This document shows positions 5,750 to 63,894 of a stretch of 64,000 bases of DNA, piece by piece. Each line of letters opens with the position of its first letter. Position 1 is the first letter of the stretch. The position numbers were made by a program, and so were the translations under genes. The stretch comes from Owenia fusiformis (lineage: Eukaryota > Annelida > Polychaeta > Sabellida > Oweniidae): positions 12,963,181 to 13,027,180 of the forward strand of contig CAIIXF020000010.1 of assembly GCA_903813345.2 (NCBI GenBank), written 5' to 3'. The notes under the pieces are model-generated. The model ran no database searches, was not told the origin of the DNA, and saw nothing but the letters and a program-made list of their open reading frames with translations.

Positions 5750-6691
5750 ACAATGATACAATAATAAATACAATTCTGTTCAAAACCCTCATTATTTTAA
5801 CCTAGGAGAGAGTGATATAATTTATCTTGTATTGTTGTAAATTGCATATTTCTTGCCTCACCCTTTTCAATAGTCTGATATTTGGTTCTTTTATAAAAAG
5901 TTACTCCAAATATAAGGTAATCCTATATTGATCTCACTTAACCTAATCAGAATACAGGACTATCAGAATTCATGAATCATATACAAGCAGCTTAGTTCAA
6001 TAAATGCTATGACAGGTATAGTAGTTTGAATAACTGGGGTGTATTGTATAATAAACTCTTACATTGCAATTGCTATTCACTTTTCATGAGGAAATGTGTT
6101 GATCAAATTGCCTTTTCTTTTATTTTTCCAGGAAATGTTTCTGATCAGATTGCCCTTGCAATTTGTTCTTCACTTTTCCCCAGGAAATGTTTTGATCAAA
6201 TTGCCCTTGCAATTATTTTTCACTTTACTTCTCGTGAAATGTTTCTGATCAAATTTTCTTGAGGAAATGAACTGATCAGATTGCCTTTGCAATTGTTTTA
6301 TTTATTTTTCTCATATTTCTCCATTAATTGTAAGTGTTATTTAGCCCACATAGTGAGCTATTCTATTTTGGTAATCATTTTCAATACTAAACTATGTTCC
6401 ATTATACATTTATGCTTTTCTGCCTTTATGGCAGATTTCTTTTAATTTCCATTTTTGCATCTGTAGCAGTTATCTCGAGCCAAGAGATGCTCAATATGCT
6501 GCTATTTCTTGTACATATTTTTGCAAGCAAGTCACTTGCTCCCCTTTATTTTTATTCGTTATTTTCTTTCGTTACTTTAGGATCAAAGAATGAATTTGTA
6601 CTGTTGACATTCAAAGCATTTTATATGGATAAAGGAAGCATTTACCCATATTTATATAAGGAAAAAATGACTATTCAACTTTCAATGCACT

Positions 6692-9720: not shown

Positions 9721-9725
9721 ATAAT

Positions 9726-19585: not shown

Positions 19586-21124
19586 ATGGGTAACACTCCA
19601 ACCCCCTTGAGGGAGACTGTAAGAGCTGATGATGTGAATAGAGCTGAGAGAATGCTTAGCAACAAGACAAGTGAGAGTAGAGCTAAGCTGATCAATGAGG
19701 ACTACAGCCCAGACTGTATTCTGGACTCTTGTAAGAGAGTTGATGGCAATGCTCTTTACTATGCTGTTGAGAGGTAATGTACTCTCTTTCCGTGATATTA
19801 TAAGCATCCATGTGAATTTTGATAGATTAGACACCTCAAATGGAGGGTAGGTCAGAATGATCAAAAGATGTATAGTAAATCCACCTGTTTATTATTATGT
19901 CACCCCCAGAAGTGGTGACATATTGTTATAATCTCCAACTTTTTAGTGGACAGTGTTTGGCGGTTAGTGGTTGATGGTTGGCATCTATAACAAATGCCAC
20001 AACTATTGATAATTAGACACCATTCCTAACAATCAGGTATTATTCATGACCAAGGCAGGGGATGTAAGATTTGGCAAATTGAAAAAACTTTGAAAATGTT
20101 AAATAGATGGCTCTCACTTTAAAGGTTTCTCCACTTTACCCACAAAATATGTAGCATGGGTATCTACATGCACTGGGAAATATGTTATTACATTGCAACC
20201 TTTTAAGATTTAAGTTACAACAATGCCACCTCTGTCATAATTGGAATAATCCAACCATTGTCACCACTGAAAGAATATCGGCTACCACCGAGACCACTTT
20301 AATAATCCTGTATTAACAAGACTAATTTATTATATATTTATTTCATTCAAAATTTAAAAATTGTTTATTCCATCAGTTCATACATATTTAAATACTGTGT
20401 TGTATATTCTAAAATAAAGGACAAAAATTAATCCAAACATTTTACACAAATAAAATTTGAACACATAAAAAAGTTTAAAAATGTTAAAGGCCCCATGTAA
20501 AGTAAACCATTTTTGCCTTCATTGTAGTCTTGTAAAATGTTAAAAATGTTAAAAAGTGATAGGTGATGCAAATTTAAATTGAAAGTATAAACTAAATAAT
20601 ATTCACCGCTATTCTTATTCCAACAATATGATTTCAGGAATAGGGTCAAGATGGTAGAACTATTCCTGAAACACGGAGGAGATATTCACTCTCTTGGGAG
20701 ATATGATGAGACTTTATTACACTGCTGTGGACGTGTGCATGGCAATGTTAAACTTGCAAAAATACTTATAGAGCATGGAGCTGATCTAAAGGCAACTGAT
20801 GACCTTGGGAGATATCCAATACACAGCGCTTCCTCATCAGGATTTTTCAACAAAACACCATTCATTGAATATCTCCTGTCGACAATGAATGAAGCCGATG
20901 CACGTGATTACTTAAACATTAAGGATTTTTATGGTAATACACCCTTGATGACTGCTGTTAATGCTGAGAATATACCCGTCACTCAGTCACTTCAGTTGCT
21001 AGGAGCTGATGACACTATTGTCAATAACAATGGACAGACAGCCTTTGATATAGCAAAAGAAAGGAAAGCTGAAATGATGGAAATTCTAGAATCTAAACAA
21101 AGATTGACAGATAACAGTAATTGA
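19586..21124 (+). CDS. Ankyrin-repeat protein, 2 exons, 224 aa
   Basis: Two coding exons: 19586-19773 and 20638-21124, joined at GAGAG|GTAATG and TTTCAG|GAA. The join splits an Arg codon and reads YYAVERNRVKMVELFL, completing an ankyrin helix pair exactly across the intron, which supports the splice. About five ankyrin units follow, with recognisable ETLLHCCGR, GRYPIHSASSSG, GNTPLMTAV and GQTAFDIA cores, ending in a basic/acidic tail. The start MGNTP is a possible N-myristoylation signal (Gly2), though it could be fortuitous. Ankyrin repeats bind other proteins; nothing here shows the partner. It is one of many such genes in animals and I cannot assign orthology. The 864-bp intron holds an old MITE near 19.9 kb. 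Confidence 0.85.
19899..20290. mobile_element. Old MITE in ankyrin-gene intron
   Basis: It starts TGTCACCCCCAGAAGTGGTG and shares 'ATATTGTTATAATCTCC' type words, in the other orientation, with copies near 14.27 and 33.9 kb. The right end is uncertain. Confidence 0.4.
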
Positions 21125-43500: not shown

Positions 43501-45063
43501 ATAAAGTAGCAACTCTCATGTTCAATATGTATATGGATGTTTGAAATACGATCATTTTGTGATCTTTTCAATCTCACACCTTAATTAACTACAATATCTA
43601 AGATCGACAATTTCCATTGTTCAACTCCAATGCTGGATATGAATTTAGTTATGATGCTGGATTTCCTGAAAGCTGCGAAGAGTGAGATTGCTACTTTAAG
43701 AGGCATCAAGTACTCATGGTTGGACCTGGTAGACGCTGCACATTGTCTGAGGTTTAACGATGGGAAGTACCAGATCATGTGGGGGAGAGACGAGGTATGT
43801 GCACATACAAGATAGCATCAACCTTCTACTAGCTGGACTTCTAAACACTTTTTACACACAAAACGATAATAAGTTAAGAAATAACCACAGGAATTAGTCT
43901 ATGACATCCTGAATGAAATGTCGATATGATATAGCATTCTAGTCAAGACCCCCTTGTTTGCGAGTAACTTTGGAAAGATCAAGACAAAGGGGTAAATCGA
44001 GTGAATCCCTTCTATCAGAGACATTCAAAATCAATGTCAGACTTGCATACTTGTACGTACAGTGTACATCCAGGATGAAAATGTGTGAACATGTATTTGG
44101 TCCTATGAAATATGTTGATTTATAATGTAACCTAAATACAAATATTTCCCTCGTGTACTAGAATACTCAATCAATGGCACTTTGGAAAAGAGACCGTAAT
44201 CCTGTTCGGTCCCGTGCGTTCGGTAGTCGTCACTATGAACTAACTAAATGCTATACTAGTATTTATTTTATCTTGTCGAACAGTGTCATTAATTATGCAT
44301 ATGACTCAAAACATAGTTGCCTCCTTATGCTGTTTTCAGCAACTTCTGACTGCCCTTGTACTGGGTATAGATTCAGCAGTTGGCAGCACCTACAACTTCA
44401 TGCCACGCTTATATCAGAGAATGATCGAGGCGTTCGAAAAAGGCGACATATGGGTGGCTCAGAAAGAGATGTATAGGATACAAGATGCTGTACTGGCGTT
44501 GTTCAAACACGGTAAGAAGGCAGGCTGGTTTGGACATGCTATTGATACTTTTGGGTATTGGGTCATGCAATGTATGCTAGAGCTGTCTGAGCCTCATTCT
44601 CATGAATCATTAACTTATACTGTTCAAATGGGTATGGAAAGGAGCGCGAGCCCTCAATAATTTAGTTTGGACATGCTACTGACACTTACGAGTATTGGGT
44701 CATATGATATGCTAGAGAGGTTTGATTCCTCATTGTCAGTAGTTCTTCTCAACGGAACTGTTCATCAGATGGGAATGAATAGGACCCCTTGATGGAATAT
44801 CACGGATGTTCATTGCAGTTTGGTTTGGACGTGTTATTGTCAATATGAATAATACGTTTAGTTCGACCCTCATTGTCATTAATTATTCTAAATTGAACTT
44901 TTCAGGATTCGCTGGTGTCGGGCCTCAGAAAGCTATATGTAAACATATAGGTCTAAATCTTGGTCCAGCTAGGTCACCGATAGAAACCCCATCCGATGAT
45001 AAAATGGATGATATTGCTAAGGACTTGTCCGATATGGGATTTAACGAATGGATAGAACAATAG
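40594..45063 (+). CDS. NPL: N-acetylneuraminate lyase, 9 exons
   Basis: This enzyme splits N-acetylneuraminate into N-acetylmannosamine and pyruvate in the cytosol. Coding segments are 40594-40719, 40848-40914, 42323-42410, 42613-42670, 42811-42886, 43239-43331, 43649-43794, 44340-44511 and 44906-45063: 984 nt, 327 residues (human about 320). Family signatures are HGLCAATFTPL, VNGTTGEG (about residues 65-72), PFFYYHIP with the catalytic Tyr (about 160), and GIKYSWLDL with the Schiff-base Lys (about 190), then AVGSTYNF. The start is the weak point: ATG 40594 is in frame and open, but it gives about 19 extra N-terminal residues, and TTTTCAG just before ATTTCCGAA could be an acceptor for an unseen first exon. 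Exon 2 seems to use the second AG of TAGGGAG. A second version of the last exon follows. Confidence 0.93.
40944..41934. mobile_element. Mariner-like fold-back element in NPL intron
   Basis: The ends TAGGGTGTCTCAAAAAA and TTTTTTTGAGACACCCTG sit between TA dinucleotides, as in Tc1/mariner. The first and last 240 or so bases are inverted copies of each other (compare 41088-41190 with 41687-41790). The right arm still encodes the C-terminus of a mariner transposase (FLCGYLKECF, DLEQLRA, VMNNVAVRIQAVIE). The catalytic core is gone, so it is non-autonomous. Confidence 0.8.
41989..42066. mobile_element. Short hairpin MITE, TACCCTTTGCA family (copy 1)
   Basis: TACCCTTTGCATTCGTTTGA at the left and CTCTGCAGGCAGGGTA at the right, 78 bp, in NPL intron 2. 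A longer relative is at 46362-46448. Confidence 0.6.
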
Positions 45064-46531: not shown

Positions 46532-49500
46532 ATGCGTCTCATCATTATACTGCTGTTGGCGTTATATGCTATCAGTAAGTTGGCTTAAAACTCATTTGAT
46601 GGAACATGGGCTTTCAACTAGAAGGGTATGCAACTCTATGTAATAACATGAGACCTTCAAAATGAGCAATGACATGCTTCCCTTTTATGGCAATATTTCA
46701 AAAAGTATTAGATAAATGTATATGTTTTAGTATTAATTTGAATAAAAATCAATTTTTAATATGATTTAAGCATAAAATATATTCAATATCATATAAAAGT
46801 AAACAAAAGAGACCAATAAGAATAAGAGTTATCAAGATGTTCTCTTTGAGTATTGCATTGTGGGTAATTATTCAAGAACACATTCCAATAAAAACATAAT
46901 TTGTGGGAGAATGTTCACTTTCTGTATTGTCATAATTATGATGAATTCCAATTTTTATTAAATTATCAAGATGTATGTAGAAGATCATGTTTTTATTTTT
47001 GAGTTATTTCTTTTAATCATCAATAAAAAGTACAAAATAAGATTTTCTTGGAATGTGTACATTCTCCAATTTTGAAAACCCATGGCAATGTTTATGTATG
47101 AAATATGGGAAGTTGCCTACCCTTCTAGTTGAAAGCCCATGGATGGAACAAGTTCACTAAATCTAAAACCATTTTTGTAGATGTGACAATATATGTCTTA
47201 AATAATAATCCCGTTATTCAAATGCATGTACAGATAATACCGTAAGTTCAAAGTAATATTCTGTAGCATAAACATGAATATATAATTGGTGTGGAATCTC
47301 GGATATAGTGATGTAACGTAAAGGTCCTACATTTAAATGCCCTACATGTATGCTGGATAATACAGCTGCCAAAAAGTCATCAAGTCATACATGCAACAAG
47401 TAAGACGTTACCAAAATACAGTAAATCATATTTCTGCACTGAACTGTTTAAAAGAATGACATCATTACTAATAGATGACATGGTTGACAGGAATGGTATG
47501 TTCATTACATTATATATAACTTTATTTTACATTATAATGATTGTATTCCAGGTCTTTGTGACGCAGGAAAGAAAAGAGGAAAGGAAGGGAGAAAGGATAA
47601 AGTAGCAGGGAAGGCTGGGAAGCCTGGGAAACCCGGGAAGGGAGGTAGAGGGGGAAAGGAAGGGAAAATTAGAGGAAAGAAAAAGGGTTCTGGTATGTAT
47701 GCTTTCCATTGATTCGAATGCTACTACACATTTTTGAAATAAAATCAATAATTAGGTTTTTATTTTAAAACAAGATAAAAGTAACATGCTTATTTGGTAT
47801 GATATGCCTACATTTAAAGGTCCCATGTAAAGTTCATCAAATATTATTTTTGACCCAATTTCTCGCCATTCAAATACAACACTATACATTGTACAACACA
47901 TTATTTTATCAACTTCATTTGATAATGGAGGTTGATATTGTTTCAACCGTTAAATTTTTATGTTTAAACTTGAAATATAAGCAAGACTGTTTGATTCTTT
48001 TTGAATAAAGCTAATCCTAGGTAAAAGATTCTAGGAAGTGTTGTACCTATAACCGAATTGGTTTAAACTTTGCATGGGGCCTTTACAGATTAAACAATAA
48101 CAATAACTCCTCGAATAAGTCGTGAAACATTTTGCGCATTTGTTTCAGACTCATGTCCTTCAGACCCAGACCATCAAATATATCGTAAGTACAATACCAT
48201 TTCTAATATTGATCTGGATTATGCGTCAGCTTTACCAAAGACAAATACATATAGTTATAAGTTACCACATCCAGACACTTAGTCTTGCTTGAAGACCCTG
48301 TTGTAGATACGGGGATGGGGGTCAAGGGTCTTAAAGCAAGACTTACACCTACTATTTATACTCCAGACCCTTCTTTCCAGAGACAACGAGCGAACGACAA
48401 ATGTGTTGTCAAAATAATATCATATACATGGCAAGCGGAGGTCCTATGTACCAGTCGAAGGGACTGAACAGTGGAGATATGTGGAAGGACGGGGCTTGTG
48501 ACAAAAGCGAGGATCATATATTCAAAGTCTACGGAATCAACTCATGCAGATGTGTCAAAGGAGGCAAGTATGAGCAATTGTTAACAAGGTCGACTTGAAA
48601 ATCAATGTATCATATATGAAAAGGAATGCTAAGCATAGGAAAACAATACACAACCACTGCAACATGTATGTACTCTTAAAATGATGTGGTAATTAACTCA
48701 CAATCCGTTTCATTTTAGATCTATGCCCAGCAGACGATTCTCCAAAGTACAGAGCAAACGGTAAGATTATGAACTGAAACTCACAGTTATAGAAAATATT
48801 ACCGCAAACAGTACAATGTATGTACAGTGTAGATCTAGCAAATAGTGCACTGATTGTGTTTGGTGTTTGTAAAACTGAACATAATGAAGATGTCAAAAGG
48901 AGATAACAACGCTAATTGTTTTTTAAAACATTAATTTATATTTGATAGAGTGGCATAAATGTCCGTTATAATAGATTTTCTCACGACCTTATAGTTTTTA
49001 CGTTTGGATTATAGGTTACCTACATGTATGTATCTGTATCTAATTATCTTTTAAGAATATATTCTCTATATAAAACTCATTAGAGTTCAGTCAACTATAT
49101 GTTTTTTGAATTGTAATTGTAATTCACATTCAATTTAGTTTTTGAACAACAGGGTTTTCCTCATAAACAATCGGACATGTTTTTGACGTTTGATCAATAT
49201 TCAACAGATACTAAGTATTGTACTTTGTTAAATACAATTATAGTAAAGGCATTTCCAAAGATGGAGAAAATATTAAAAGAGAAAGCTTTACTTAGCTATA
49301 GTTTCATGGTAGAACAATTAACAAGCAACGCGACTAGCTTTAAATTCATCTATGCATGCCTGGCAGCACCAGTCTCCACATACAAGTTTGACGTTCTTCC
49401 CCGACTCACAGTTTACACACACATGCTCTTTTAGTACATGAAATGCTTGCATAATTCGCTTCAGGCAAGGACTTTTTGCAGCAAGCCACATCCGAAAATA

Positions 49501-52500
49501 AAACTCATCACCAGCGGAGCTAGCGCCACTTCTAACCTTTCCCCGTAAAAGCTGCAAAAATGTTTTCCGCTGGGTCATTAAATGGTGGTAAAGGTAGTGA
49601 ATACGCTCATTCTCCCTGTCCGGGTTGTACCAGGCTGCTATGGTATGTTGAAGTCGGGCTCCGTACGAACTGAAAATTGTCAAGATGAAGGTGACAATAA
49701 ACCAACTAATTAACCATGTCATTTGTGAATCCCTGTAGAAAGGAGGGAGGGGATCTGGTAGACATGCTTCCGTTTTAATCTCCAAGGTGTAATTGAAGGT
49801 AGTTGTATTACTCGCGAAAAGGTTCGGGACTTCCTGATAAAACAACTGACGAATATTTTGACTAGTATCATTCAATTCGATGTGGAAACCGTTTGCGCCA
49901 TCTATAACCATCGTTACATTCGCCTCTGCTTGTATGATCTCCAATATGCGGAACAAAACATAGTCAATCAAACACAGAAACGCTGCAGCTACAGCAAATG
50001 GTGTAAAAATGATGATTTCCCGAAGCATTCCGTAGATTTCCTGTTGAGATATACAACACGACGTATCAATTAAGTCTGATCGCTCTTTCCTTTTTAGCGG
50101 CAATAACGTTTCTTTGCTCATCGCCTTTCTTTTTGAATCTTTCTTTTTAAAAGACTTGGTTACGTAGATGTTTCTATAGTGAAGATGTCGATTGTATCCT
50201 CGATAATAGCAACATGCCTGTCCAAGAACAACAACAATAGATACATACGCTAAAATTCCGAGTCCACCTATGATTTTTTGAAGAAAGGCCGTCTTTTCAT
50301 CAAAATCTGCATTAAGTTTTTCGCCTACATCGGAAAGCTTTTCTATTCCTTCAACTTGTGGAGGATCAAGAAAGCGAACAGCATTAATGTCATTGGTGTA
50401 GTTATTCACATCTGACCAAAATATGCTTACATTCCTAATCGTACCGAGCTGTGGATCTGGGTTGAATTTGGCAAAAGCTTTCAAACTGTTGGCAAGTTTG
50501 AATAATATACTTGAAAAGGATTTCATTGCTTCGATATGAAACCCAAAGAGTCGGTTTGTGGTTGTTTCAAATTCTTCGCTGTATTCTTGTACCCGTATAA
50601 ACATAGCGTATTGTACTGCTTTGACTTCCTTTGTCAGCATTTCAACCTGACATGAAGTAGCTTCGGGGATTTTCTTTGCGTTGTCTAATGTATTGGCGAG
50701 TGGACCTGAAAACAGGAGTTTTAATATGACAGTCCATAATATGGCCTTCCCACGAGACGTAGAAAGGCCGGGAAGTGTCAAAAGTGCGATACATCGGGCT
50801 GTGCTTGACATCATTACAAATACTGATATAGAGATGGAAACTACAAGAAACACTATCATCAGTTCCACTGGAGGGTACTTGATTTTATTATACGATGTTA
50901 CTTCTTCTACGTCAAGGGTTCTAGTATTATTTGAATCATAAAGGGTATTGTTTGTTTGAGGGAAGTAAATTTTAAGCAAATCCCAATGTTGTGTTTTGTT
51001 TGACGTTTTCAATTTGTTCATTATCGGTTCAAAGTATCCTTCCCTATAAAGCATCAGGGCAAAAATACCAATACTAAATGCAAATACAAATAGGGCTAAG
51101 GCCATTTTGCTATTGCAATATCTTGGTGCGCAATCATCATGAATTGTCCTGTTTCTTTCGATGCCGCCTTTGTGAACCTGATCAATCCCATCCGTTTCCC
51201 TGTCATTGCTGATTACGCTTAATCGAACATTGTCCATAATGCTGTCTTGCTGACGATACTCCGGGCGTGTTGATTTAACTGTCTGTCTGTTTCCTTCTAA
51301 AACTTGCATCTTTCATTTATTTTGTTCATCGTCAAACACTTTTTTGATGATGTTGATGATCAATGTCATATCTTCCGCAATGATGGACTTACTGAACATG
51401 GTGTCTTTCTCACAGGATCCCAAGTGGCACGATCTAAAAGGAAACGAGTCACATTAAAATAATTCTGAAAATATTTTCAAAACATAAAAATAAACTTGAT
51501 ACACATCTAGAAAAAATGCGAATAAAAATTAATTTTAAATTATTGCTTTCATTTTAATGTAATAATAACATACCTTTATGTTTGAGATGCTTATTAACAC
51601 TTGACTCCAATTGCCATAATCCGTATCTGTGTAATTAGTTGTTTACTTGGTCAAAATAAATAAGATCGGGAAAAGCAGTTGATAACGTTGAAAGAGCGTC
51701 CGAGTGATTCCGTGTAGCCATTCTTATTGTAAATATGCAACATGAATTCCGACGTCTCTTGATTACTTCATGAGGGGTGGAACAAATACACGCCTAATAC
51801 ATCATTACCCCGAATCAAAATCGGATAGCTACACTTTGCCGTCCGATCTCATATGTGGGGTTTAAAGTGGTAGGTTTGATTTGTCGTAGTTTGACGATGA
51901 ACTAAATACAAATGCTCAAGAAAGTGAAAATAGCATCGTCGCGTTGTTTTCAAACTACATTTTCGAATTGGAGAAATTCTACATAATTTACCCCAAAAAA
52001 TTACACCAGCTGTATGCTAACATATAATGGATGGAAATCTGCCGCATCCAAATGGAAAGAACCATATACGTGCATATTAATAGCATATCCTATATATTCA
52101 AAATGTAGTTATACGCCCTCCATATGGTCCGTCATAAAGGGGAGGTTTACAATCTTTATAAGATAAAGGATCAGACAAATTATTGCACTGTGGCTTGTCT
52201 AAGGTACCAATACTTGTCACATTCAATAAAGCATATCTGCAATAGTAGCAGGAATAATAGAAATAATCCCCAACAGAATGTGCATCTTTGCCAAAACAGA
52301 GCCAATATCTTGATTTCAACGATAACGAATGGATAATTGCCCCATATGCCTTATATATTGAGGGATATACTCACTGATATAGGATGTATTCTTATTCTAA
52401 GTCATATAATGACATGAAGAAACGACCAGCAACTTTCGAAGCTAGGCTATAACGCTTTTCAATAGTTCAAAAATGTAAATTCAACTAAGTCTATAATCAG

Positions 52501-55500
52501 AAGGTGGCGATACCGTGGCAGTAGTGCTGCGAGTTCAACTCATTTTATGTTTTTTTTCTATAATTACAAGGTGACGATACAATTACCAGACGCTGCAAGT
52601 TCAACTCATTTTATGTTTTTTTCTATAATTACAAGGTGACGATACAATTACAATGCGCTGCAAGTTCAACTCATTTTATGTTTTTTCTATACTTACAAGG
52701 TGATGATACAGTTACCATGCGCTGCAAGTTCAACTCTTTTTATGTTTTTTCTAAACTTACAAGGTGATGATACAGTTACCATGCGCTGCAAGTTCAACTC
52801 TTTTTATGTTTTTTCTAAACTTACAAGGTGATGATACAGTTACCATGCGCTGCAAGTTCAACTAATTTTATGTTTTTTTTTCTATAATTACAAGGTGACG
52901 ATACAGTTACCATGCGCTGCAAGTTCAACTCATTTTATGTTTTTTTTTCTATAATTACAAGGTGACGATACAATTACCAGACGCTGCAAGTTCAACTCAT
53001 TTTATGTTTTTCTATAATTACAAGGCGACGATACAATTACCATGTGCTGCAAGTTCAACTCCCAGTACTATAGAGGTGAAGGTGCCAAATACAAGAAGCT
53101 GAAGTTAAGGCGAAATGGCGTCAAATACTTGGAGTGTCGTGAGGGGGAGATCTTTAAGATACGTGGGCCTCATGAATGCGGATGTGAAGGTTAGAAAATA
53201 ATGCAAAGAATACTAAAAACTATAAAACCCTGAGTGATTACCAAAAAAGCATCTTTGATATAGAAACAGGACAAATGTGAAATACACTCAGGTATCTCAA
53301 ACTAACACATTTGACAACTAGCACATTATGTATTACAGAGGATATCAAAGAGACCATTGCAGTGGACCAGGCAGGGGCGGATAACAAAATCGAAGACCCG
53401 GATGAAACAAGTACGATTTAAAATACACCATTAAATGTGACATCAATGTGATGCATCCATGGCACAACAACACATTAACGTTGAATTAATGAGCAAATTA
53501 TCTTTAATTGCCAAGTAAAATATTTCGTCTGCAGAAAAATATTAATTCAACATTAGTATATTGAACATTGCGCAAATACGTTGATTAAGTAGGTAAAAGC
53601 TCGAGTTAGAATTTTATATAGTCTATTCAGTTGATGACGAAGTTTATAAAATGCGTCTCATTAACTAGATATTGTACTTTATCCATTTCAGTAATTCGGA
53701 GCAGCATGCGCTCTAAATGTGGAGGATCACTAAAGCACATCTCTCCCATTAGACTTGTTGCTCGGACTATCAATGGCAAGCGTTATCACGTTCCCCAAGC
53801 GTGTCTTGTAACCGATAGATGGTTCTACATATGCAACAAAGCTGAAGCGTATGCATCGGTAAGATATTCCAGCTCGTTGAAAAGAAAGAGAATATCATTT
53901 AGTTATTAGAACTGCGACCCACCTTCGCGATCAATAATAATATATCACAAACCAGGATTCCCCAAAAAATAAGTAACAATAAAGGGCTATCCCAAACGGT
54001 GCATACTCTTTATAGCATTCGCATAACTGAAACAACATACTCGAACATTGATCACAAAACAAATTAAAAACTATCATAATTACAGCAGCTATCGGTTCGC
54101 CAAAATATTCATTTAAGTATTTTGTAATTGCTTTAACATGTTTTTTCTTCTCTGAAATAAAAAATTTAATAAAAAAATATTCATTTAATTTCAATCTTGA
54201 TATTTTAGGAAATATGTAAAGAGCTGAATCTTTGTCAGTCTAACATGCCTGGTCCGTTCGACTGTAGCAACGCTAAAGGTGAGTAAAGTGTCATTATATC
54301 ATTCCATGCGTTAAACGTTATCAATCCTTTATGTTAATTTATTTATTTGTTTCCACCTCACACTCTAAATATATAAATTGCTCGTCTTAGCAATATATAA
54401 ATAAATTACCCCTACATTAATTTTTATAATTATAACGTATGGTTTAAAAGTAAATTAGTATATACTACAGTATGTACATTTTTATGCTCTCCCAACACGG
54501 AGGAAATAGAGACATAAACATAGAAAACATAAACTCATGTAGATGGTGGAGCAGCCGGGAAGAATCTTGAACTGAATTGAATGAAATGGATTTCTTTGCT
54601 TTCACGTTCCAATGTCCACTTGAACAGCTAGCAACCTTTTCAAATTTTATATATTTGTTTCATATTACTAGAATCTTTATTCGATCCATTGTCATGTTCA
54701 ATTCAATTCCAATAAACTATTCAAAGGGATTTTAACATATCTGTGTACTGATAAAAACAAATGTGAATATCCACTTAAATTATTTTTGACTTCTATAGCG
54801 GCGTATGCTAATCCCAATCAACATAATGATAAATCTTAAATGTTAGTTGCAATTTGCGCCCTTTCCCAATATCCCTGATGTTAGCTCTTCAAAAACTCGA
54901 TCCATACTTTTGCTGATGACAACATTTAACGACTTCCAGGTGAGATAGTCAAGGCACTCCGGGGGTCGAATTGGCTTACATACAGGGTGAACATGCTACC
55001 ATTTTTCCCTCTTGGTGAAGCATGTCAACAGGTTGACAACGTCCTGACAATTCAGTGTGAGTACACGTAAAATTCAATTCTAGAGGGCGCTGAGATATAA
55101 CCGTAATATTAATGCAATTTACTCTGTTATCTTTCGGTAAAGTAAATAATTAAGCCTACTTTAATTACATACACAAGCTTTGAGTACAAGTCAGTGGTAT
55201 GGTTGTCTGTTATCATAACATGGATGATGAGCTATTCCATCTTGTTGGGGGTTGAACAATGAACATGTATACGAAAGGCAGACAAGTCTCATTCTGATAC
55301 CTATAACAACTTTCTACTTCAACTAAAAAAGCGTAAAGAAAGCCATAATTTCTCATGTTGGATAATGATGGGGATCACATGTAGTGTTATAATGAACGTA
55401 ACTGACAAATTGACCTTGGTCTATTTCAGGCCCAATTCCATTCAATTTGGCAGCCAAAGACCAAATTTCAGATGGGACGTCAAACGACAACGAAGTATAG
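46532..55500 (+). CDS. Secreted six-Cys-module protein with SRCR-like end, 368 aa
   Basis: Eleven coding exons: 46532-46574, 47552-47692, 48149-48184, 48381-48563, 48719-48760, 53025-53189, 53339-53410, 53692-53858, 54209-54278, 54940-55056 and 55430-55500 (1,107 nt; all phases close). Signal peptide MRLIIILLLALYAISLCDA (1-19); Lys/Gly/Arg-rich stretch without strict Gly-X-Y (20-61); then two copies of a pair made of a mini-exon with Cys-Pro (SCPSD, LCPAD) and an exon with C-C-x28-29-C-x13-15-C-x-C preceded by IFK-V/I-x-G. This is six cysteines per unit (64-131 and 137-202). An acidic linker (204-227) leads to a domain (about 234-346) with PIRLV, RWFYIC, AEAYASEICKELNL and GEACQQV, reading like a divergent scavenger-receptor Cys-rich domain. 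Almost all introns are phase 1; the fourth coding intron (after 48563) starts GCAAGT. AATAAA lies near 55.6 kb. Function unknown; an extracellular role is inferred. Confidence 0.85.
46605..47141. mobile_element. 537-bp TIR element with 7-bp duplication
   Basis: About 30-bp inverted ends (CATGGGCTTTCAACTAGAAG then GGTA-x-GCAAC) bound an AT-rich non-coding interior. The flanks are a perfect 7-bp repeat GATGGAA (46598-46604 and 47142-47148). A 7-bp duplication and CATG tips would fit a P-superfamily or Dada-like element; this is tentative. It sits in the first coding intron of the secreted-protein gene. Confidence 0.8.
47814..48085. mobile_element. MITE with TAAAGGTCCCATG ends
   Basis: TAAAGGTCCCATGTAAAG at the left and CTTTGCATGGGGCCTTTA at the right are inverted. 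A related one-ended word (AAAGGCCCCATGTAAAG) occurs at 20.49 kb. It lies in an intron of the secreted-protein gene. Confidence 0.7.
49318..51309 (-). CDS. DC-STAMP-domain membrane protein (DCST1/2-like), single exon
   Basis: An uninterrupted 663-residue frame. About six membrane segments: 69-88, 147-170, 189-205, 344-366, 431-456 and 530-549. SGPLANTLDNAKKI after the third segment and the late block ERIHYLYHHLMTQRKTFL resemble DC-STAMP-like proteins (DCST1, DCST2, sneaky, SPE-42). The C-terminus has a small cysteine finger, C631, C634, C644, C648, C649, C652, as in the RING-like tails of DCST proteins. The family acts at cell surfaces in cell fusion, with DCST1/DCST2 in sperm-egg fusion; a sperm role here is inference. 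The gene lies entirely inside the 4.3-kb intron 48761-53024 of the secreted-protein gene, on the opposite strand. The lack of introns, where the neighbours have many, suggests retroposition or intron loss. An upstream reading frame precedes the start. Confidence 0.88.
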   Translation of the reverse strand: MQVLEGNRQTVKSTRPEYRQQDSIMDNVRLSVISNDRETDGIDQVHKGGIERNRTIHDDCAPRYCNSKMALALFVFAFSIGIFALMLYREGYFEPIMNKLKTSNKTQHWDLLKIYFPQTNNTLYDSNNTRTLDVEEVTSYNKIKYPPVELMIVFLVVSISISVFVMMSSTARCIALLTLPGLSTSRGKAILWTVILKLLFSGPLANTLDNAKKIPEATSCQVEMLTKEVKAVQYAMFIRVQEYSEEFETTTNRLFGFHIEAMKSFSSILFKLANSLKAFAKFNPDPQLGTIRNVSIFWSDVNNYTNDINAVRFLDPPQVEGIEKLSDVGEKLNADFDEKTAFLQKIIGGLGILAYVSIVVVLGQACCYYRGYNRHLHYRNIYVTKSFKKKDSKRKAMSKETLLPLKRKERSDLIDTSCCISQQEIYGMLREIIIFTPFAVAAAFLCLIDYVLFRILEIIQAEANVTMVIDGANGFHIELNDTSQNIRQLFYQEVPNLFASNTTTFNYTLEIKTEACLPDPLPPFYRDSQMTWLISWFIVTFILTIFSSYGARLQHTIAAWYNPDRENERIHYLYHHLMTQRKTFLQLLRGKVRSGASSAGDEFYFRMWLAAKSPCLKRIMQAFHVLKEHVCVNCESGKNVKLVCGDWCCQACIDEFKASRVAC
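51313..51399 (-). promoter_or_regulatory. Upstream ORF before the DC-STAMP-like gene
   Basis: An ATG in good context (ACACCATGT) opens 28 codons, MFSKSIIAEDM to DEQNK, ending in TGA three bases before the main ATG at 51309. Such a frame could limit initiation at the main start. Alternatively CAGTAAGT inside it is a donor and the 5' UTR is spliced. Confidence 0.4.
51420..52485. other. Intron sequence without further gene
   Basis: This is upstream of the DC-STAMP-like gene (its promoter should be here, minus strand) and within the host gene's intron. A minus-strand frame at 52098-52319 has no recognisable domain. Confidence 0.4.
52490..53060 (+). repeat. Tandem array of a 3' splice site plus exon start
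   Basis: Nine units of about 58-70 bp, each reading pyrimidine tract - TATAATTACAAG - GTGACGATACAATTACCATG - CGCTGCAAGTTCAACTC - ATTTTATG. The last unit is the real acceptor and first 15 or so codons of the exon at 53025-53189 (GDDTITMCCKFNS). The eight units before it are copies of that junction within the intron; the first (about 52.49 kb) is the most diverged. The middle units share TTACCATGCGCTGC and are nearly identical to each other, showing recent spread. Each copy keeps the AG and a pyrimidine run, so each is a potential competing acceptor. Confidence 0.9.
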
Positions 55501-56334
55501 ATGAACGATATGGAAAAGATTCAATAAACTGAGAATGAAGTCATAGTCAGACCAACTTCCACTGTTCATCATTCCAACGATGTGTCATTTCTTGCCTTGA
55601 AATAAAAAATATATCAATTTCCCAAAGCGTAAACTGGTTTCTAGTCTTTTTTGTTTATTTTGTTGCTTTTGTTGTTATCATGATCAAATGATCAAAAGGA
55701 CGAATGGGGTTTTATTTATGGCAGGCCACAAAAATTAAAAATGCTTGGATAAATGAACGAATAAGTTGGATAAATTGACGATTTTTTCCTTACGTTTCCC
55801 TTTCGCTTATTTTTTATTGAAATTCAAGAAAGGTCTTGAAAAGTAAATCTCAGGTAGTTGGTTGACTTTGTCTGACTTTTTCAAATATATCAGCAGCCTT
55901 GAAAGGAGCTTTAAAACCATACAGCCATTGTGTCTGTTTATTCGTTAGAACGTCGATCAATCACCCAGAATGTAACATAACACCCGGCCTTAACACAATC
56001 TAACTATCTTTTCAAACTTACAAAAAGATTCACAATTTCAACGTCATTGCCATTAATATAAATATAATAGACTTTTGACTTTGTTTTGATAAGCGTCTGA
56101 TCTTACGATTAGGGCCCAAGTAACAAGTTTTTAAGTTAAAATTTGAGAGGACGCAGCTATAGGGTAAGTAGGAATTTTACCTGTCTTTTTCAAAATTGTA
56201 TTTCTAAGATTTGAGTACATATTTTCTTGATAATCGTAAATTTGTTTTTTTAATAGTTTATACTTTCATAATTGCATTTTATTCACTTGAAAACTGAATT
56301 GTACGTTTATGGCATCTTTTCAGAAATCGAAACC
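55501..56334. other. 3' UTR of first paralogue and promoter of second
   Basis: AATAAAAAATAT near 55.6 kb is the likely polyadenylation signal of the first paralogue. A non-coding first exon of the second probably ends at 56163 (CTATAGG|GTAAGT), with AATATAAATATAATAG near 56.06 kb as a possible TATA region. The coding exon begins after TCTTTTCAG at 56323. Confidence 0.5.
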
Positions 56335-59300
56335 ATGAAGGTTTTCGTTGTTGTTTTGGCGGTGTGTCTTCTTTTAGGCAAGTATATTACCTATTATTAT
56401 TTAGCTTTCGATTACTTAGTACTACATGGAATATGTCTAAACTTTAAACAAAAATAACAACTTGACATATTGCTGATATAACTACAACTCTTTTTTAAGT
56501 ATATGTTTTCTTTATTTTAAACTCATTCTTTGTCTATTGATGGTCAATCAGGGCCAATGCGGACCATGGATGCATGGACAGTCAATACTCGCTTGGGAAC
56601 CGTAATCTATGTTCGCAGTCGACAACCCGCCATTAATCATTTCTTTTCAGAACCACTGGAGTAGTGAGCCATACAAAGGAGTAGAGTAACATGTCATGAT
56701 TGTGTACACGAAAAAATTAGTCAAAACATAATTTGAAATCAACGGGTCACATCGTGTACGTCATAGTCAGCTTTAATGCGGCGTTTTAGAGTTATTCTAT
56801 ACCCTCTCTTATAGTTAATGATGCGATATTATGTTTTTTCTAGATCTGTTAAACGTTTATTAAGTGACTATGAAATGCGGACTGGAAACATCCAATAGCC
56901 TAACATTATTTTTAATACCCTTTCCATTTTGTTCGTCCCCGAAGAAGGCCATGCATTTTAATCACTTTATTATTCTTTATTATTGTTTGTGAAACCAGAG
57001 AATCTATTTCCATACGGCTAAATATTATACAAATATATTAAATTTTATAGATGTGTACCTTTGCATCTTTCGCAAGAGATATCATATTCAACGAAGCCCG
57101 AAGGTATTCTCCGAAAATAGAATTAAATATTTGTTTTATCATACCACTGTTAAGCAATATCTTCAATAAAACAAATATCAAATGTTAACATTGAAATACA
57201 TGTACATTAACATTTTTAAATAAAACATATTGGATTAACTCAATCCCGGCGATTTATAAAATCGTAATTGACACTGGACTAAGTCGTAATACAGGGTGCC
57301 CCAAAAGAAATGCAACCTGGTCATGTTTTGATAACGTTTCCAATCAATGCGGTTGAACCTACAACTTAAAATTACAAATCGAGGGCGTTTCTCTTTTTAT
57401 TATACATTTACATCAAGAAAAGTTGTGCAGTATGTAAAATTCAAAAACATTAACACTTGAACTCTACACAGGTCCAGTCATATTTTCATTTGTTAATGAT
57501 ATCTGAAATATTAATAAAAAATTGATCACTTTTGCAAAAATATATGAGGCAGATACCTCATCCATTATTCTTTAATAAGAATATATAGGGGTTATGCACT
57601 GGGAGGTTTTGGATACGGGGAATATCCCGAGGGATATACAATATATCTTCCCGAGGGACCGAAGGGACCGAGGGAAGATGTATTGTATATCCCAAGGGAT
57701 ATTCCATGTATCCAAACCGACCGTGCATAACTGGTGTATCTCATACTTGAGTGGCTTTAAGGTAGATATAACCTTTTCCACCTTTTTCAAATGACAAGAT
57801 ATTTATATTTAACATTTGCGTAATATTCTTTTTGTTCAATACAATGAAATTGTAACATTTAAACTTAAAAAAATTAAATTATAAAATTAAAACTTTTGAT
57901 AATTAAACTTTTTTAAACTTTTGAAAAATTCCCGGGAGCGGGATGGATATATTATATCTGCCCGCATTTGGCCTGGAGCGGGACATATACAATATATCCT
58001 GCCCGCTCCTCAGATACGATATATATTCCCGGGTGATATCTACCGCAAACCCACTCAAGTATGAGATACATAGAGATTATCCTATATGAGGTTCAGGATA
58101 TTGGGATTATCCCGAGGCCAATATAATATATCTGCCCGAGGGCCGTAGGTCCCGAGGGTAGATATATTATATTGGCCAAGGGATAATCCAAATATCCTGA
58201 ACCGACTATAGGATGATCTGTTTATCCCATACCAATGACATTGTTCAATTGGCCAAAGTTCAGAAACTTTGCAACCAATCGTGGAATTATTTTAAAATAT
58301 TCATGTCCAGTTTTGTATTCTTGTTTCTTTTCCTGCTCAAATCTTTGATTATTAACGGGGTATACTGCTCCTTCCCTTCTTTAAAGCATCAAACAGGTCG
58401 AGATTGTCTGCGTTTTTCTCCATTGTTACAGTATGCGAACGTTACAAAAAAAGAACCAATACGGGAACAGCGATTATGACGTAGCGGGCAGATATACTAT
58501 ATCTGCCCGCTCGGAGCGGGACGTAAAGCTATATCTGCCCGCTGATGAAAATATAAGTTTTTACAAACCGGCTTTATGTACCCGTAACACGTCCAAGTAT
58601 GGGATAAAAGAGATTATCCCATATGAGGTTCGGGATTTTGGGATTATCCCGAGGCAAATATAATATATCTGCCCGAGGGCCGTTGGACCCGATGGAATAT
58701 ATGTTATATTGACCAAGGGATAATCCCAATCCTGAACCGACTATAGGAACCAACGAGCCGTATCCATGTCCAGTTTCGTATGCGAACGGCGATTATGATA
58801 TCTGCCCGCTGATGAAATATATAGAGATTATCCTATATGAGGTTCAGGATATTGGGATTATCCCGAGGCAAATATGATATTTTTGCCCGAGGGCCGCAGG
58901 TCCCGAGGGAAAATATATAATATTGGCAAAGGGATAATCCCAATATCCTGAACCGACTATAGGATGATATGTTTATCCCATACCATTCTTGTTCATCTGG
59001 TTCACATTGTTCAATCGTAAATTTTTTTTAGAATATTCATGTCCAGTTTTGTTTTCTTGGCCGTGGACGGATTTTCCTGTTCTCTCAAATATTCCCACAT
59101 TTATTTTCTCGATTTTTTTTATTGATTAAGTGGATGCTCCTTCCCTTTTTTAAACCATCAAACAGATCCCGATTGTATGTGTTTTCTCCATTGTCGTTTA
59201 CAGTCATTACGCGAACGTTACAAATTATGAACAAATATGCGAGCGGCGATTATGACGTAGCGGGCAGATACACTATATCTGCCCGCTCGGAGCGGGACGT

Positions 59301-62300
59301 AAAGCTATGTATCTCATACTTGAGTGGGTTTGGGGTAGATATCACCCGGGAATATATATCGTATCTGAGGAGCGGGCAGGATATATTGTATATGTCCCGC
59401 TCCAGGCCAAATGCGGGCAGATATAATATATCCATCCCGCTCCCGGGAATTTTTCCAAAGTTTAAAAAAGTTTAAATATCAAAAGTTTTAATTTTTTAAT
59501 TTTAAAATTTAATTTTTTTAAGTTTAAATGTTACAATTTCATGGTATTGAACAAAAAGAATATTACGAAAATGTTAAATATAAATATCTTGTCATTTGAA
59601 AAAGGTGGAAAAGGTTATATCTACCCTAAACTCACTCAAGTATGAGATACACCAGTTATGCACGGTCGGTTTGGATACATGGAATATCCCTTGGGATATT
59701 GTCGCGCCGGGACGTTTCCAAGGAGTACCCTGTTTCTCAACTTCAGGGAAAGGCCAGGGACGATATAAGGGATCTTTGAGGTGTTGTATTTGGGTGCCGA
59801 CCTAATTTGGTGGTACGGCAGTTACCTTTTAAGATGGCAAAATAACAATAGTATACAGGGATTTTATACTCTATTCCAATGTAAAATAATAATACAAATA
59901 AATTCAAAATGTCTATATAGAGCTGGAATGTCTCTGTAATTGTTCACTTCAGCTTCTTCCAGTCTTCTCTCTCTTCTAATAACACCTTGAATAATTGTAA
60001 GAGGAGGAGGATCTGCTCCTATGAACTATCTTCACCCTCTAGAAGGTCCTTCTGCTCCAACTGGTAAAATGGCCTGAGGAGGATCTGCTCCTCTGCAGCT
60101 TTCTTCACCTCTAAACTGGAATTTAACCTCGGGGGAGTTCCTTCTGCTCTAGGTATCGTCTCGTCTATATCACGGCTTCAATGTGATATCTATGGAGGAG
60201 GAATAACTCAGGAATGTCAATCAAAACTGAGATTAGACCCAAGTTATAAATGCTCCAAATAATCTTCACTGCGCTGTCCCTCAGAGTCGTCTCACCTCAG
60301 AGGAATCAGGGCTCCAGGAGTTTTGGTTCCGGAAGTGTAACCTTGGCTCAAGGAGTTATTTTGTCTCTATAAAACTGTCTCATGGAAGGGGTCCAGGCTC
60401 CGGGAGTATCTTCTGCTCGGGAAGTCGCCACTTCACAGGAGAAACCTCTTCTTTTGTACAAGACCCTAGCTATTGGAGTACCTTCCACTCCAGGAGTTGT
60501 CTCGTCTCAGGGGAAACCTCTGCTCCTGAACGCAACCCTGGCTATTGGGAGTACCTTCCGCACCGGGAGTCTTCTCGTCTCTATAATAACTTCTGTTCAA
60601 CCTCTCTCACACTGTCTCTTGGAAGGAGTCCAGACTCCGGGAGTATCCTCTGCTCAGGGAGTCGCCACTTCACAGGAGAAACCTCTTCTTTTGTACAAGA
60701 CCCTAGCTATTGGAATACCTTCCACTTCAGGAGTCTTCTCATCTCTATAAAACTGTCTCGTGGAAGGGGTCCAGGCTCCGGGAGTATCTTCTGCTCAGGG
60801 AGTCGCCACTTCACAGGAGAAACCTCTTCTCTCTCTACAGAGAAATAACACCTCTGGAATGTCAATCAGATGGTGAGATTAGACCAGAGCTGCTACTTCT
60901 CGATCGTAGAGTACCTTAGTTCCGGTAGAGTAACCTTGGCTCCAATGAGAGTAAACCTTGCAACACAGAAATACCTTGGTTCCGGTAGTGTAACCTCAAT
61001 ATCTAACTTCTGGAGGAGTCAAATCACCTCGGAGGGTACGTCAAGTTCAGCAACTTGTATCAATTTCGGATCATCAATAACTCGGAGGAGGAGAAGAAGC
61101 AACTCACGAATATCGATCATTAAACTGAGATTAGACGGAGTTGTATTCTCAACCCTCGGAGCAGATTCCACTCTAGAATAGATGGAGGAGTAAGCACTCT
61201 GAGCTAACAATCCTCAGAGCAGATATGGCTCTCGAATAGATGGAGGAGTAATCACTCGGAGCTGGCAATCCTCGGAGCAGATACAACTCTCGAATATCAA
61301 TCACAACGGAGATTAGACAGAGCTGTAACTACTCGGACCAAATATAACTCGGAGGAGATATAACACTTAATAATTGGAGGAGTAATCACTCGGAGCAGTG
61401 AGTCCTCGGAGCAGATATGACTCTTGAATATCAATCAAACTGAGATTAGACAAGAGCCCTAATTACTCGGAGGAGGAATTACTTCTTAAAATGACGTCAC
61501 TTCCGTAAAAATAAAGATGGCCGACCGCTAGGAATTCTGGGAAGAAGAAATCAAAATGGCGGACAGCAATATGGCGTCAAACTCAATAATCAAATTGCCA
61601 ACTCACCCAAAACTGGCTGTAATCTTCTTGTATCTCGCACAGTCACAACGGACGCAAAAACTGCAGCAAATAATGTCAGCAAATAATCCAAATATCATGT
61701 AATATAGTTCTCTATTCAAATCGATCACGCTCTCACATAAAACGATACAAACTGACGAGGTGTTTCCTCTGCAAAGTATTGGTTTACTCTGATTTACAGG
61801 TCACTTTCTCACACTAAAATCCAGACACCTCAAGTTGCATCATGGGAAAACTACAACTTAAGTTGGCGGTAAATTCAAATGAAGCCATCTGATTGGTTGA
61901 GCTCTGTTGCTGGGTGCCTAATTATGCAAATTTATTCCAACCCAGCTTGCTGATCAAGTAAACATCCAAATTACAGGGACGGAACATTGAATAAACATGA
62001 AATAACATAAAATCCTGTAAAATAAACGTTTCACAGGCCCTAGTACTACTCAGGGGGAATTAAAAATTCCCACAATATACAATACATCTTCCCTCGGTCC
62101 CTTCGGTCCCTCAGGAAGATATATTGTATATCCCTCGGAATATTCCCTGTATCCAAAACCTCCCAGTGCATAACCCCTATATCTGCCCGTTGATGAAAAT
62201 ATAAGTTTTTACAAACCGGCTTTATGTACCTGTAACACGTCCAAGTATGGGATAAAAGTTGTTACAAACCTGCTTTATGTACCCGTAACACGTCCAAGTA

Positions 62301-63894
62301 TGGGATAAAATCCATTTGTGGAAAAGGTAGCAAAATTAAAGTATATTGCACGGATACTGTATCTCAACAAAATCAATAAATTTCTAGTCTGTGTGCATGC
62401 CCAAAGAGAAAGAAAGAAAAACAAGGATGGCAGAGAAGGTGGGAAAAGGGGAGATAGAAGACCAGGCAAAGTGAAAAAGCCACGTATGTTTATAATGATT
62501 TTTCATTATTTCCACACGATATTAATATTGTACCATAATGATATACTATTCACCTTCATTCATAATGTTCCGAATATCATATCGTTGAATGCTTTATTCA
62601 AAAAACGTGTACATTTTGAACTGCAGCTTAAGTTCCATACTCTGCCACAAAGTCTTTAGTTTTTGTTTCAGGTCCAGGGACGGGTACTCCATGTCCAGAT
62701 GCCAACAACGCTGCCTACGGTGAGTGAACAATACAAGCATTTTTTTTTATATAATCCATATATAATTTTGCTTCATGATTCTAAAACCTCAGTTACTTGA
62801 TTTTAAGCAAGCATGCCAGGAACAACACCAAGGGGAGTTTCCACGTGCCAATCTTGACAGTAGCTAAAATATTTGCTCATGAATTTAAAGTTTTGATCTT
62901 GGTATCTATTTTATGATTTTTATAATCCTTATTTGCTAATTATTATGTTATGTTGTTAGTTTTTATCCGAATATTAAGTTCTCAATTGGACAGACAACAT
63001 GTAAAATTCAATATATTCGAAGATATTTATATTTTAACAAAATATGCATGCATAGATAAAAAAGATATCCAAATGTGTATAAATGTATGAGGTAGTCACA
63101 TAAATGAAAATGTATGAGGTAGTCACATGAATTGAAAATGTATGATTCACATAATTGATGGTTGACAAAGCAATAAGTCATCAATTATTCTGTTAAATAA
63201 GAATATAATACACTCCTTATATATTTTTCAGAGATTGAATGGAAGGGTAGAAAGGCATGTTGCAAAGATGGTATATGGAAATGGCCGACAGGGGGCCCTG
63301 TGTTAGTCGAACAACCAAACGGCCAAGATAAAGCTGAGCCAGTCGCCAAGAGGTGCAGAGGATCAGGCATATTTACAGTGACTGGGCCAAACAAGTGTGA
63401 TTGCGTCAGATCTGGTAATTAATTTAATGATGAAAAACATTTTGTCCCAAAATATCTGACGCGGCTGTATCAAACGCTGACGTCTTTGTCATGATTTAGT
63501 TTTGTAACCTTGGCGCGTAGTAAGGGGTTCACTTTTCAAAAGATTCCTAGAGGGGATGGGGTTCAGATTTGACAATTTTGGAATAATCTTTGACCAGGGG
63601 AGAGGGTAAAACGTTATTTATTAGACTCTTGTAGTTACAGAACATATTATGCATGTGCCCTTGAGGCACATTTATTTTACTCATATTATTCCTAACTATT
63701 GAATGGCAAAAACAGTCTTGAGCAAAGCAAGGAAGAATATGGTCAACTACATTGTTAACCGCTCATCTTTAATGAATTCAAAACTGACATAAAGCACAAT
63801 AATTTACCTAAATTTCAACTTATATGTATTGAAGTGACATATTCTTATTTCAAAATTGTAGATATCTGTCCAGAAGAAGGAGACCTGAGATATG
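56335..63894 (+). CDS. Second secreted six-Cys-module protein, 5' part
   Basis: A paralogue of the preceding gene, cut by the window's right edge. Coding exons seen: 56335-56377, 62388-62483, 62672-62719, 63232-63414 and 63862-63894, all joined in phase 1. The first coding exon is 43 nt and the main Cys exon 183 nt, exactly as in the first gene. Signal peptide MKVFVVVLAVCLLLVCVHA (1-19) is followed by a Lys/Arg-rich stretch (QRERKKNKDGREGGKRGDRR), a mini-exon with TPCPDANN, a module C-C-x30-C-x13-C-x-C with GIFTVTGPNKCDC, and the next mini-exon with DICPEEGD. The first coding intron starts GCAAGT and is 6 kb long because of inserted palindromic elements. A second Cys module, acidic linker and SRCR-like exons should follow beyond 64 kb. 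Confidence 0.85.
57294..57420. mobile_element. Mariner-type element end
   Basis: TACAGGGTGCCCCAAAAGAA is a typical Tc1/mariner terminus after TA; no right end was found nearby. The extent is arbitrary. Confidence 0.4.
58069..58222. repeat. Hairpin unit 1
   Basis: A nearly perfect inverted repeat: TATATGAGGTTCAGGATATT ... CCAATATAATATATCTGCCC | loop GAGGGCCGTAGGTCCCGAG | the reverse complement out to CCTGAACCGACTATAGG. Confidence 0.85.
58607..58750. repeat. Hairpin unit 2
   Basis: Same unit with more mismatches in the right half (TCCCATATGAGGTTCGGGAT ... CCTGAACCGACTATAGG). Confidence 0.8.
58816..58990. repeat. Hairpin unit 3
   Basis: Same unit with AAATATGATATTTTTGCCCG in the stem; it continues into TTTATCCCATACC as unit 1 does. 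Confidence 0.8.
59700..62074. mobile_element. Probable solo LTR, family undetermined
   Basis: The element starts TGTCGCGCCGGG and ends ATTCCCACA, the TG...CA form of LTRs, between two ATAT copies (59696-59699 and 62075-62078). It splits a sequence that is continuous in the opposite arm of the host palindrome, which fixes its ends well. AATAAA-type hexamers lie near its right end. No gag or pol is visible, so it is either a long solo LTR left by recombination or another long non-coding insertion. It contains its own tandem sub-repeats (60376-60890 and 61.18-61.45 kb). It is younger than the palindromic element it sits in. Confidence 0.5.
60376..60890. repeat. Tandem sub-repeats within the probable LTR
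   Basis: Three copies of a segment with GGGTCCAGGCTCCGGGAGTA, AGTCGCCACTTCACAGGAGA and (first two) AAGACCCTAGCTATTGGA begin near 60376, 60612 and 60753. Open frames across them are a by-product of composition. Confidence 0.75.
63505..63610. mobile_element. Fragment of the CAGG...CCTG MITE family
   Basis: Reversed words such as GGGGTTCACTTTTCAAAA and GATTTGACAATTTTGG match the inner part of 23699-23903. The ends are eroded. It lies in an intron of the second secreted-protein gene. Confidence 0.5.

What the first reader, a model, noticed from the sequence alone, without database searches (positions are those of the whole stretch)
46532..63894. Tandem paralogues of an apparently undescribed secreted six-cysteine-module family
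Seen: two neighbouring plus-strand genes share a 43-nt signal-peptide exon, a Lys/Gly/Arg-rich exon, Cys-Pro mini-exons and a 183-nt exon with C-C-x28-30-C-x13-15-C-x-C. All are on phase-1 symmetric exons, the class that duplicates without frame damage. The Cys unit matches no family I can name. Inferred: secreted, disulphide-rich proteins of an expanding local cluster, possibly immune, adhesive or matrix-related.
Basis: partly seen in the sequence, partly recalled or inferred. Interest (0 to 1): 0.8.

Follow-up and report, generated by a model that had tools for sequence, protein, structure and literature searches.

The report
Shuffled six-cysteine secreted-protein module
Two neighbouring genes encode related, apparently secreted proteins built from a small six-cysteine block that the family libraries searched here do not describe; the same block occurs many times elsewhere in this animal's genome and probably helps to build or bind material outside cells.

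Summary
Gene A (46532-55500; 10 predicted exons, 329 aa) lies in the window. Gene B starts at 56335 and ends about 4.3 kb beyond it (10 exons, 351 aa). They align over 297 positions (26% identity, E 1e-16). Both encode a signal peptide, a Lys/Arg/Gly-rich segment, two six-Cys modules (CP...CC-x28..30-C-x13..15-CxC), a linker and a Cys-rich tail that looks remotely SRCR-like.

The module is real and wider than this locus. A profile built without the window's modules finds only the four module exons of A and B as significant hits among 2388 ORFs. Protein searches of the same genome give 57 module-length places (a lower bound), mostly on contigs C12 and C3, only these four on C10. Elsewhere it lies beside C8, TIL and TSP1-like exons, and its best splice sites are nearly always phase 1. 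Pfam-A, NCBIfam and PDB sequences gave no accepted match. 'Undescribed module family' is supported as far as these libraries reach; 'expanding local cluster' is not.

The animal is probably the annelid Owenia fusiformis (inference). Best functional guess: a secreted matrix, mucus or tube component whose basic segment binds acidic glycans. No transcripts, reliable structure or other animal genomes were available.

The parts
46532..46574 (+). gene A exon 1, signal peptide, 43 nt
   Evidence: hydrophobic start judged by eye
47552..47692 (+). gene A exon 2, Lys/Gly/Arg-rich, phase 1-1
   Evidence: 18 K+R, 4 D+E, 14 G in 46 aa
48149..48184 (+). gene A exon 3, Cys-Pro mini-exon (Cys1 of module 1)
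48381..48563 (+). gene A exon 4, Cys2-6 of module 1, 183 nt, GC donor
   Evidence: E 4.8e-8
48719..48760 (+). gene A exon 5, Cys-Pro mini-exon (Cys1 of module 2)
52526..53061 (+). 64-bp tandem array copying the acceptor and head of exon A6
53025..53189 (+). gene A exon 6, Cys2-6 of module 2, 165 nt
   Evidence: E 1.6e-7
53339..53410 (+). gene A exon 7, linker, phase 1-1
53692..53858 (+). gene A exon 8, start of Cys-rich, remotely SRCR-like tail
54209..54278 (+). gene A exon 9, tail
55430..55500 (+). gene A exon 10 with stop; tail shorter than in gene B
56335..56377 (+). gene B exon 1, signal peptide, 43 nt, GC donor
62388..62483 (+). gene B exon 2, Lys/Arg/Gly-rich
   Evidence: 13 K+R, 4 D+E in 31 aa
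62672..62719 (+). gene B exon 3, Cys-Pro mini-exon
63232..63414 (+). gene B exon 4, Cys2-6 of module 1, 183 nt
   Evidence: E 1.1e-8
63862..63894 (+). gene B exon 5, Cys-Pro mini-exon; the gene goes on in L062 (132-296, 921-974, 1440-1627, 1974-2128, 4168-4258), outside the window

Best explanation
Genes A and B are paralogues lying in tandem. They encode secreted multidomain proteins: signal peptide, polybasic Lys/Arg/Gly segment, two six-Cys modules, linker, and a Cys-rich tail remotely like SRCR. The module is a mobile, phase 1-1 extracellular domain used many times in this genome, at several places beside C8, TIL and TSP1-like exons, as in mucin- or SCO-spondin-like matrix proteins. In A and B an intron cuts the module after Cys1; elsewhere it is mostly one exon. 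Shown by sequence: exon anatomy, paralogy, module family and its spread. Inferred: the proteins are exported; the disulphide-bonded modules act as compact binding or cross-linking units in an extracellular matrix, mucus or tube secretion; the polybasic segment holds acidic glycans. I put the anatomy and the module family at about 0.9 and the matrix/mucus role at about 0.5.
For: Exon anatomy and phases. Paralogy, 76 of 297 identical, E 1e-16. Independent profile finds the four module exons. 57 module-length places (compiled from 21, 22, 85, 86). dN/dS below 0.75 in 28 of 29 computable pairs of modules outside A and B (31 pairs at 70% identity or more). TIL and C8 exons beside the module at C2 (E 5.1e-7, 1.5e-9, over cut-off). 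Basic exons. vWFD, SRCR and TSP-1 domains, and one protein with positively charged repeats, among limpet adhesive candidates (PMC7333891, passages).
Against: No transcripts. TSP1-like neighbours stay below the Pfam cut-off or without hit. Neighbour exons were not joined into gene models. The tail fails Pfam. One of 29 dN/dS ratios is 1.62. The structure model is poor (pLDDT 57). In the module tree A pairs with A and B with B on long branches, while exon lengths (183/165 in both) suggest duplication as a two-module gene. Nothing measures function.
Confidence: 0.5

Rival explanations
1. Humoral immune recognition proteins: the modules and the SRCR-like tail bind microbial surfaces and the polybasic segment acts as an antimicrobial or opsonic arm.
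For: SRCR-like tail; polybasic exon; the genome is rich in SRCR exons (154 matches); the window modules sit on long branches.
Against: The SRCR likeness is unproven. Only two genes here, no local expansion. Module neighbours elsewhere are of matrix type.
Confidence: 0.25
2. The module is a strongly diverged member of a known domain (CBM_14 peritrophin-type or another) that sequence profiles fail to join.
For: CBM_14 is the best Pfam lead, for 2 of 36 modules (E 0.0069 and 0.023); for 3 of 6 chosen modules at most 9 of 1000 Cys-kept shuffles reach the CBM_14 score.
Against: Scores are below the Pfam cut-off. hhalign 22% over 17 columns, 14% for the 7-Cys subset. For the other 3 of 6 modules 45, 71 and 735 of 1000 shuffles reach the score. 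Vicinal Cys-Cys and CxC spacing differ.
Confidence: 0.2
3. One or both window genes are decaying copies, no longer making a working protein.
For: Gene A lacks the last Cys-rich part of gene B, and no copy of it was found after A. GC donors in both. A 6-kb intron full of inverted repeats in B.
Against: Ten exons in each read through with splice sites in register and all six module Cys are kept in all four modules.
Confidence: 0.08

Closest known systems
SCO-spondin and mucin-like vWD-C8-TIL-TSP1 extracellular proteins (architecture recalled)
   Same: At C2 the order C8, TIL, module, TSP1-like exon is seen; TIL and C8 pass Pfam cut-offs.
   Different: The six-Cys module matches no accepted Pfam-A domain. 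Genes A and B carry no C8, TIL or TSP1 that Pfam sees.
SRCR-domain secreted proteins
   Same: The tail of gene B scores 15.8 bits against a profile of 9 own-genome SRCR domains, reached by 0 of 2000 shuffles and 2 of 2000 with Cys kept.
   Different: No Pfam hit, no PDB hit; hhalign 29%; gene A's tail is cut short.
CBM_14 / peritrophin-A chitin-binding domain
   Same: Small Cys-rich extracellular domain with a C-P-x-G-x-x-F stretch; weak hits for 2 of 36 modules.
   Different: Different Cys spacing; all scores below cut-off; profile comparison weak.
Limpet (Patella vulgata) adhesive mucus protein candidates, PMC7333891
   Same: Secreted Cys-rich multidomain proteins with vWFD, SRCR and TSP-1; one with positively charged repeats (passages).
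   Different: No sequences were compared; the likeness is of domain type only.

Membership tests
Six-Cys module family (defined here) | C-P, C-C, C, C-x-C in order with conserved spacing | tested here: met
   all four modules of A and B; independent profile
Six-Cys module family (defined here) | phase 1-1 exon borders | tested here: met
   best acceptor phase 1 in 34 of 36 and best donor phase 1 in 34 of 36 module exons; simple consensus scoring, no transcripts
Six-Cys module family (defined here) | limited to a few phyla | not testable with these tools
   no other animal genomes held; one module in bacterial and archaeal genomes gave no relative
SRCR (PF00530) | Pfam score over cut-off | tested here: not met
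SRCR (PF00530) | likeness to own-genome SRCR domains beyond composition | tested here: inconclusive
   gene B 15.8 bits, 0 and 2 of 2000 shuffles, hhalign 29%; gene A 10.3 bits, 2 and 26 of 2000; SRCR was picked by eye first
CBM_14 (PF01607) | Pfam score over cut-off | tested here: not met
CBM_14 (PF01607) | Cys pairing C1-C3, C2-C6, C4-C5 (recalled) | not testable with these tools
   no reliable structure
TIL, C8 and TSP1 domains | presence in genes A and B | tested here: not met
   no Pfam hit; they occur beside the module at other places

The most novel reading that the evidence does not exclude
A previously unnamed, exon-shuffled six-Cys extracellular domain, with its own fold, expanded in an early-branching tube-dwelling annelid and used to assemble mucus, tube or adhesive material. 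Genes A and B are a derived branch in which an intron splits the domain after its first Cys and a polybasic glycan-binding segment was added.
Probability: 0.3. Interest if true: 0.6.

Novelty: new member of a known kind. Interest (0 to 1): 0.45.

Why it matters
If right, an extracellular domain with more than 50 copies in one animal is missing from the domain libraries searched here, so its carriers would be annotated only by their TIL, C8 or TSP1 parts or as unknown. The alignment of 36 modules is a seed for testing its taxonomic spread, its expression in secretory glands and its fold. The recurrent tandem arrays over module-exon acceptors are a separate oddity worth a look.

Tried and rejected
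Pfam and PDB with whole genes: no Pfam match for A, noise only for B, noise only for A in PDB; none for gene B's tail in PDB. NCBIfam with 9 modules: none. One module in bacterial/archaeal genomes: 14 pattern stretches, none a relative. CBM_14 as the module's family: not accepted. Other weak Pfam names among the 36 modules (Ephrin_CRD for 4, best E 0.052; five more families for 1-2 each) were taken as noise. SRCR for the tail: kept as a lead only. A candidate gene B exon (L062 1379-1420) was dropped because it leaves a 19-nt intron. The structure model of the module exon, from three window sequences and lacking Cys1, was poor, so no fold search was run and the second job was not used. Tree and exon lengths disagree on how the two-module layout arose: unresolved. 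Paper searches on contig and genome sizes gave nothing useful. Searches for the module type, Owenia tube or gland proteins, SRCR in annelids and multidomain adhesives gave no listing that by title or abstract start describes it; the papers themselves were not read. Papers: PMC9539403, passages and section 6; PMC7333891, passages; all others as search listings only.

Errors found on checking: my typed gene B protein and tail held one extra Ser, and the tail's last half too. The exon-derived protein is 351 aa. Pfam, PDB, BLASTP and the SRCR tests were rerun with the right letters: Pfam, PDB and BLASTP results are the same, SRCR support rose from 12.3 to 15.8 bits and from 10% to 29%. The genome search and the look for B's tail behind gene A were not rerun. 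One flanking letter of one row of alignment A2 (row 6 of 36) was also mistyped.
Full report
Checking the observation. Reading 46-64 kb and translating the exons with their splice sites gives two plus-strand genes. Gene A has ten exons from 46532 to 55500 and 329 aa. Gene B begins at 56335, has a 6010-nt first intron, and runs past the window. The adjoining 8.8 kb of the contig (L062) carry the rest. One candidate exon was dropped because it would leave a 19-nt intron; ten exons and 351 aa remain.

Chance. A profile of 32 modules outside A and B was run on 2388 six-frame ORFs (20 aa or more) of the window plus L062. The significant hits are the four module exons of A and B (E 6.2e-10, 1.1e-8, 4.8e-8, 1.6e-7). 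The next (E 0.093) is the ORF holding the Cys-Pro mini-exon at 63862-63894. The best hit in the reversed sequence has E 0.66.

Paralogy. A and B align over 297 positions, 76 identical, E 1e-16, from the basic segment to the tail. Gene A's tail ends where gene B goes on with more Cys-rich sequence; a look for that part behind gene A found nothing significant (run with a query that had one extra Ser).

The module family. The own genome was searched with six single-module queries. The 58 rows are 53 module-length and 5 partial. Adding four new places read gives 57: 28 on C12, 11 on C3, 4 each on C2 and C10, 2 each on C8, C69 and C466, 1 each on C1, C7, C9 and C11. The C11 place is weak (E 0.008). 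C69 and C466 are small contigs whose places resemble those on C3, perhaps alternative haplotypes (inference). The tool calls such counts lower bounds. The four C10 places are A4, A6, B4 and B6.

Thirty-six distinct modules were aligned. Majority consensus: CPPxxDPRYGGxPPxxCC...WYxPxGG..Y...DG...CPxG..F.I...CxC. Five Cys are invariant; Cys1, the Pro after it, one Tyr and one Phe reach 90%. Best-scoring acceptors are phase 1 in 34 of 36 and donors in 34 of 36. In most modules the best acceptor lies just before Cys1, so one exon holds all six Cys; in all four modules of A and B it lies between Cys1 and Cys2. Among modules outside A and B, 31 pairs of equal length are 70% identical or more; of 29 with a computable ratio, dN/dS is below 0.75 in 28 and 1.62 in one.

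Company. At one C2 place the order read on the coding strand is C8, TIL, module, TSP1-like. A TIL exon (from the neighbouring C2 copy) and the C8 exon pass Pfam cut-offs (E 5.1e-7, 1.5e-9); TSP1-like exons from C2 and C8 do not (best E 1.4 and 0.0019). On C12 the module alternates with another exon that looks TSP1-like by eye but gets no Pfam hit at E 0.01. These resemble SCO-spondin- or mucin-like matrix proteins; no full gene models were made.

Known families. Of 36 modules none reaches a Pfam cut-off; CBM_14 is the best lead, for 2 of 36. NCBIfam: none of 9. PDB profile searches: none at E 10 or less. CBM_14 was tested against 16 of 72 own-genome matches: hhalign 22% over 17 columns, 14% for an 11-member 7-Cys subset; for six modules chosen of 36, 735, 71, 45, 9, 9 and 5 of 1000 Cys-kept shuffles reach the score. 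Not accepted.

The tail. Pfam and PDB give nothing. Against a profile of 9 of the 12 fetched own-genome SRCR loci, gene B scores 15.8 bits, reached by 0 of 2000 shuffles and 2 of 2000 with Cys kept; gene A 10.3 bits, 2 and 26 of 2000. hhalign gives 29% against SRCR, 0.4% against CBM_14 and 0.07% against the modules. SRCR was chosen by eye beforehand, so this is a lead, not membership.

Organism (inference). Contig lengths are C1 62.2, C2 35.8, C4 31.9, C5 42.5, C6 40.8, C7 39.8, C8 39.3, C9 38.9, C10 37.5, C11 37.3, C12 36.7 Mb; C3 was not seen. They fit twelve chromosomes listed as text: 1, 10, 11, 12, 2 to 9. Read so, 25 forkhead matches (E 1e-15 or less) lie on chromosomes 1, 2, 5, 7, 11 and 12, with close groups on 5 and 7 and none on 4, 9 or 10. 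The Owenia fusiformis Fox paper (PMC9539403, section 6) gives 12 chromosomes, 35 Fox genes on 1, 2, 3, 5, 6, 7, 8, 11 and 12, and tandem foxQ2 on 5 and 7. Without the reordering the fit fails. I call it probable; the window would be chromosome 7.

Mechanism. Seen in sequence: signal peptides (by eye), basic exons (18 K+R against 4 D+E in 46 aa; 13 against 4 in 31 aa), two Cys modules, a Cys-rich tail. Inferred: export, disulphide-stabilised binding units, glycan-binding basic segment, work in matrix, mucus or tube secretion. The inference leans on domain company here and on the make-up of limpet adhesive candidates (PMC7333891, passages). Immune recognition is the main rival.

An oddity. Exon A6 is preceded by a 64-bp array that copies its acceptor and head up to the Cys-Cys codons. 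All 7 upstream copies with an AG acceptor run into in-frame stops. Arrays over or reaching the exon head occur at 4 of 36 module exons (64, 102, 102 and 87 bp) and over the donor end at 0 of 36, so at least three separate events by period. No background rate was measured and I have no explanation.

Limits. No transcripts, no other animal genomes, a poor structure model (pLDDT 57, pTM 0.28, three sequences), and spliced proteins could not be folded here.

Noticed in passing
52526-53061; also L015, L016, L031: Tandem arrays (64, 102, 102, 87 bp) that copy the 3' splice acceptor and head of a module exon up to about the Cys-Cys codons; 4 of 36 module exons at the acceptor end, 0 of 36 at the donor end. 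Unexplained.
   Followed up: partly
49318-51312, minus strand: A 664-aa open frame matching DC-STAMP (PF07782, E 6.8e-37) lies inside intron 5 of gene A on the opposite strand, without introns over that stretch.
   Followed up: partly
57568-62197: The 6-kb first intron of gene B is full of inverted repeats (8 pairs of 60 nt or more; best 225 nt at 93% and 206 nt at 97%), probably mobile-element sequence.
   Followed up: no
6671-7651 and 9390-11957, plus strand: LINE-like frames: endonuclease (PF03372, E 7.1e-7) and reverse transcriptase (PF00078, E 2.2e-35).
   Followed up: no
20600-21121 and 44244-44657, plus strand: An ankyrin-repeat frame (PF12796, E 1.6e-23) and a DHDPS-family frame (PF00701, E 1.3e-6; N-acetylneuraminate lyase-like is my recall).
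   Followed up: no
G000 C12:6.18-6.49 Mb and C3:9.14-9.28 Mb: The large groups of module exons lie here, not at the window.
   Followed up: partly
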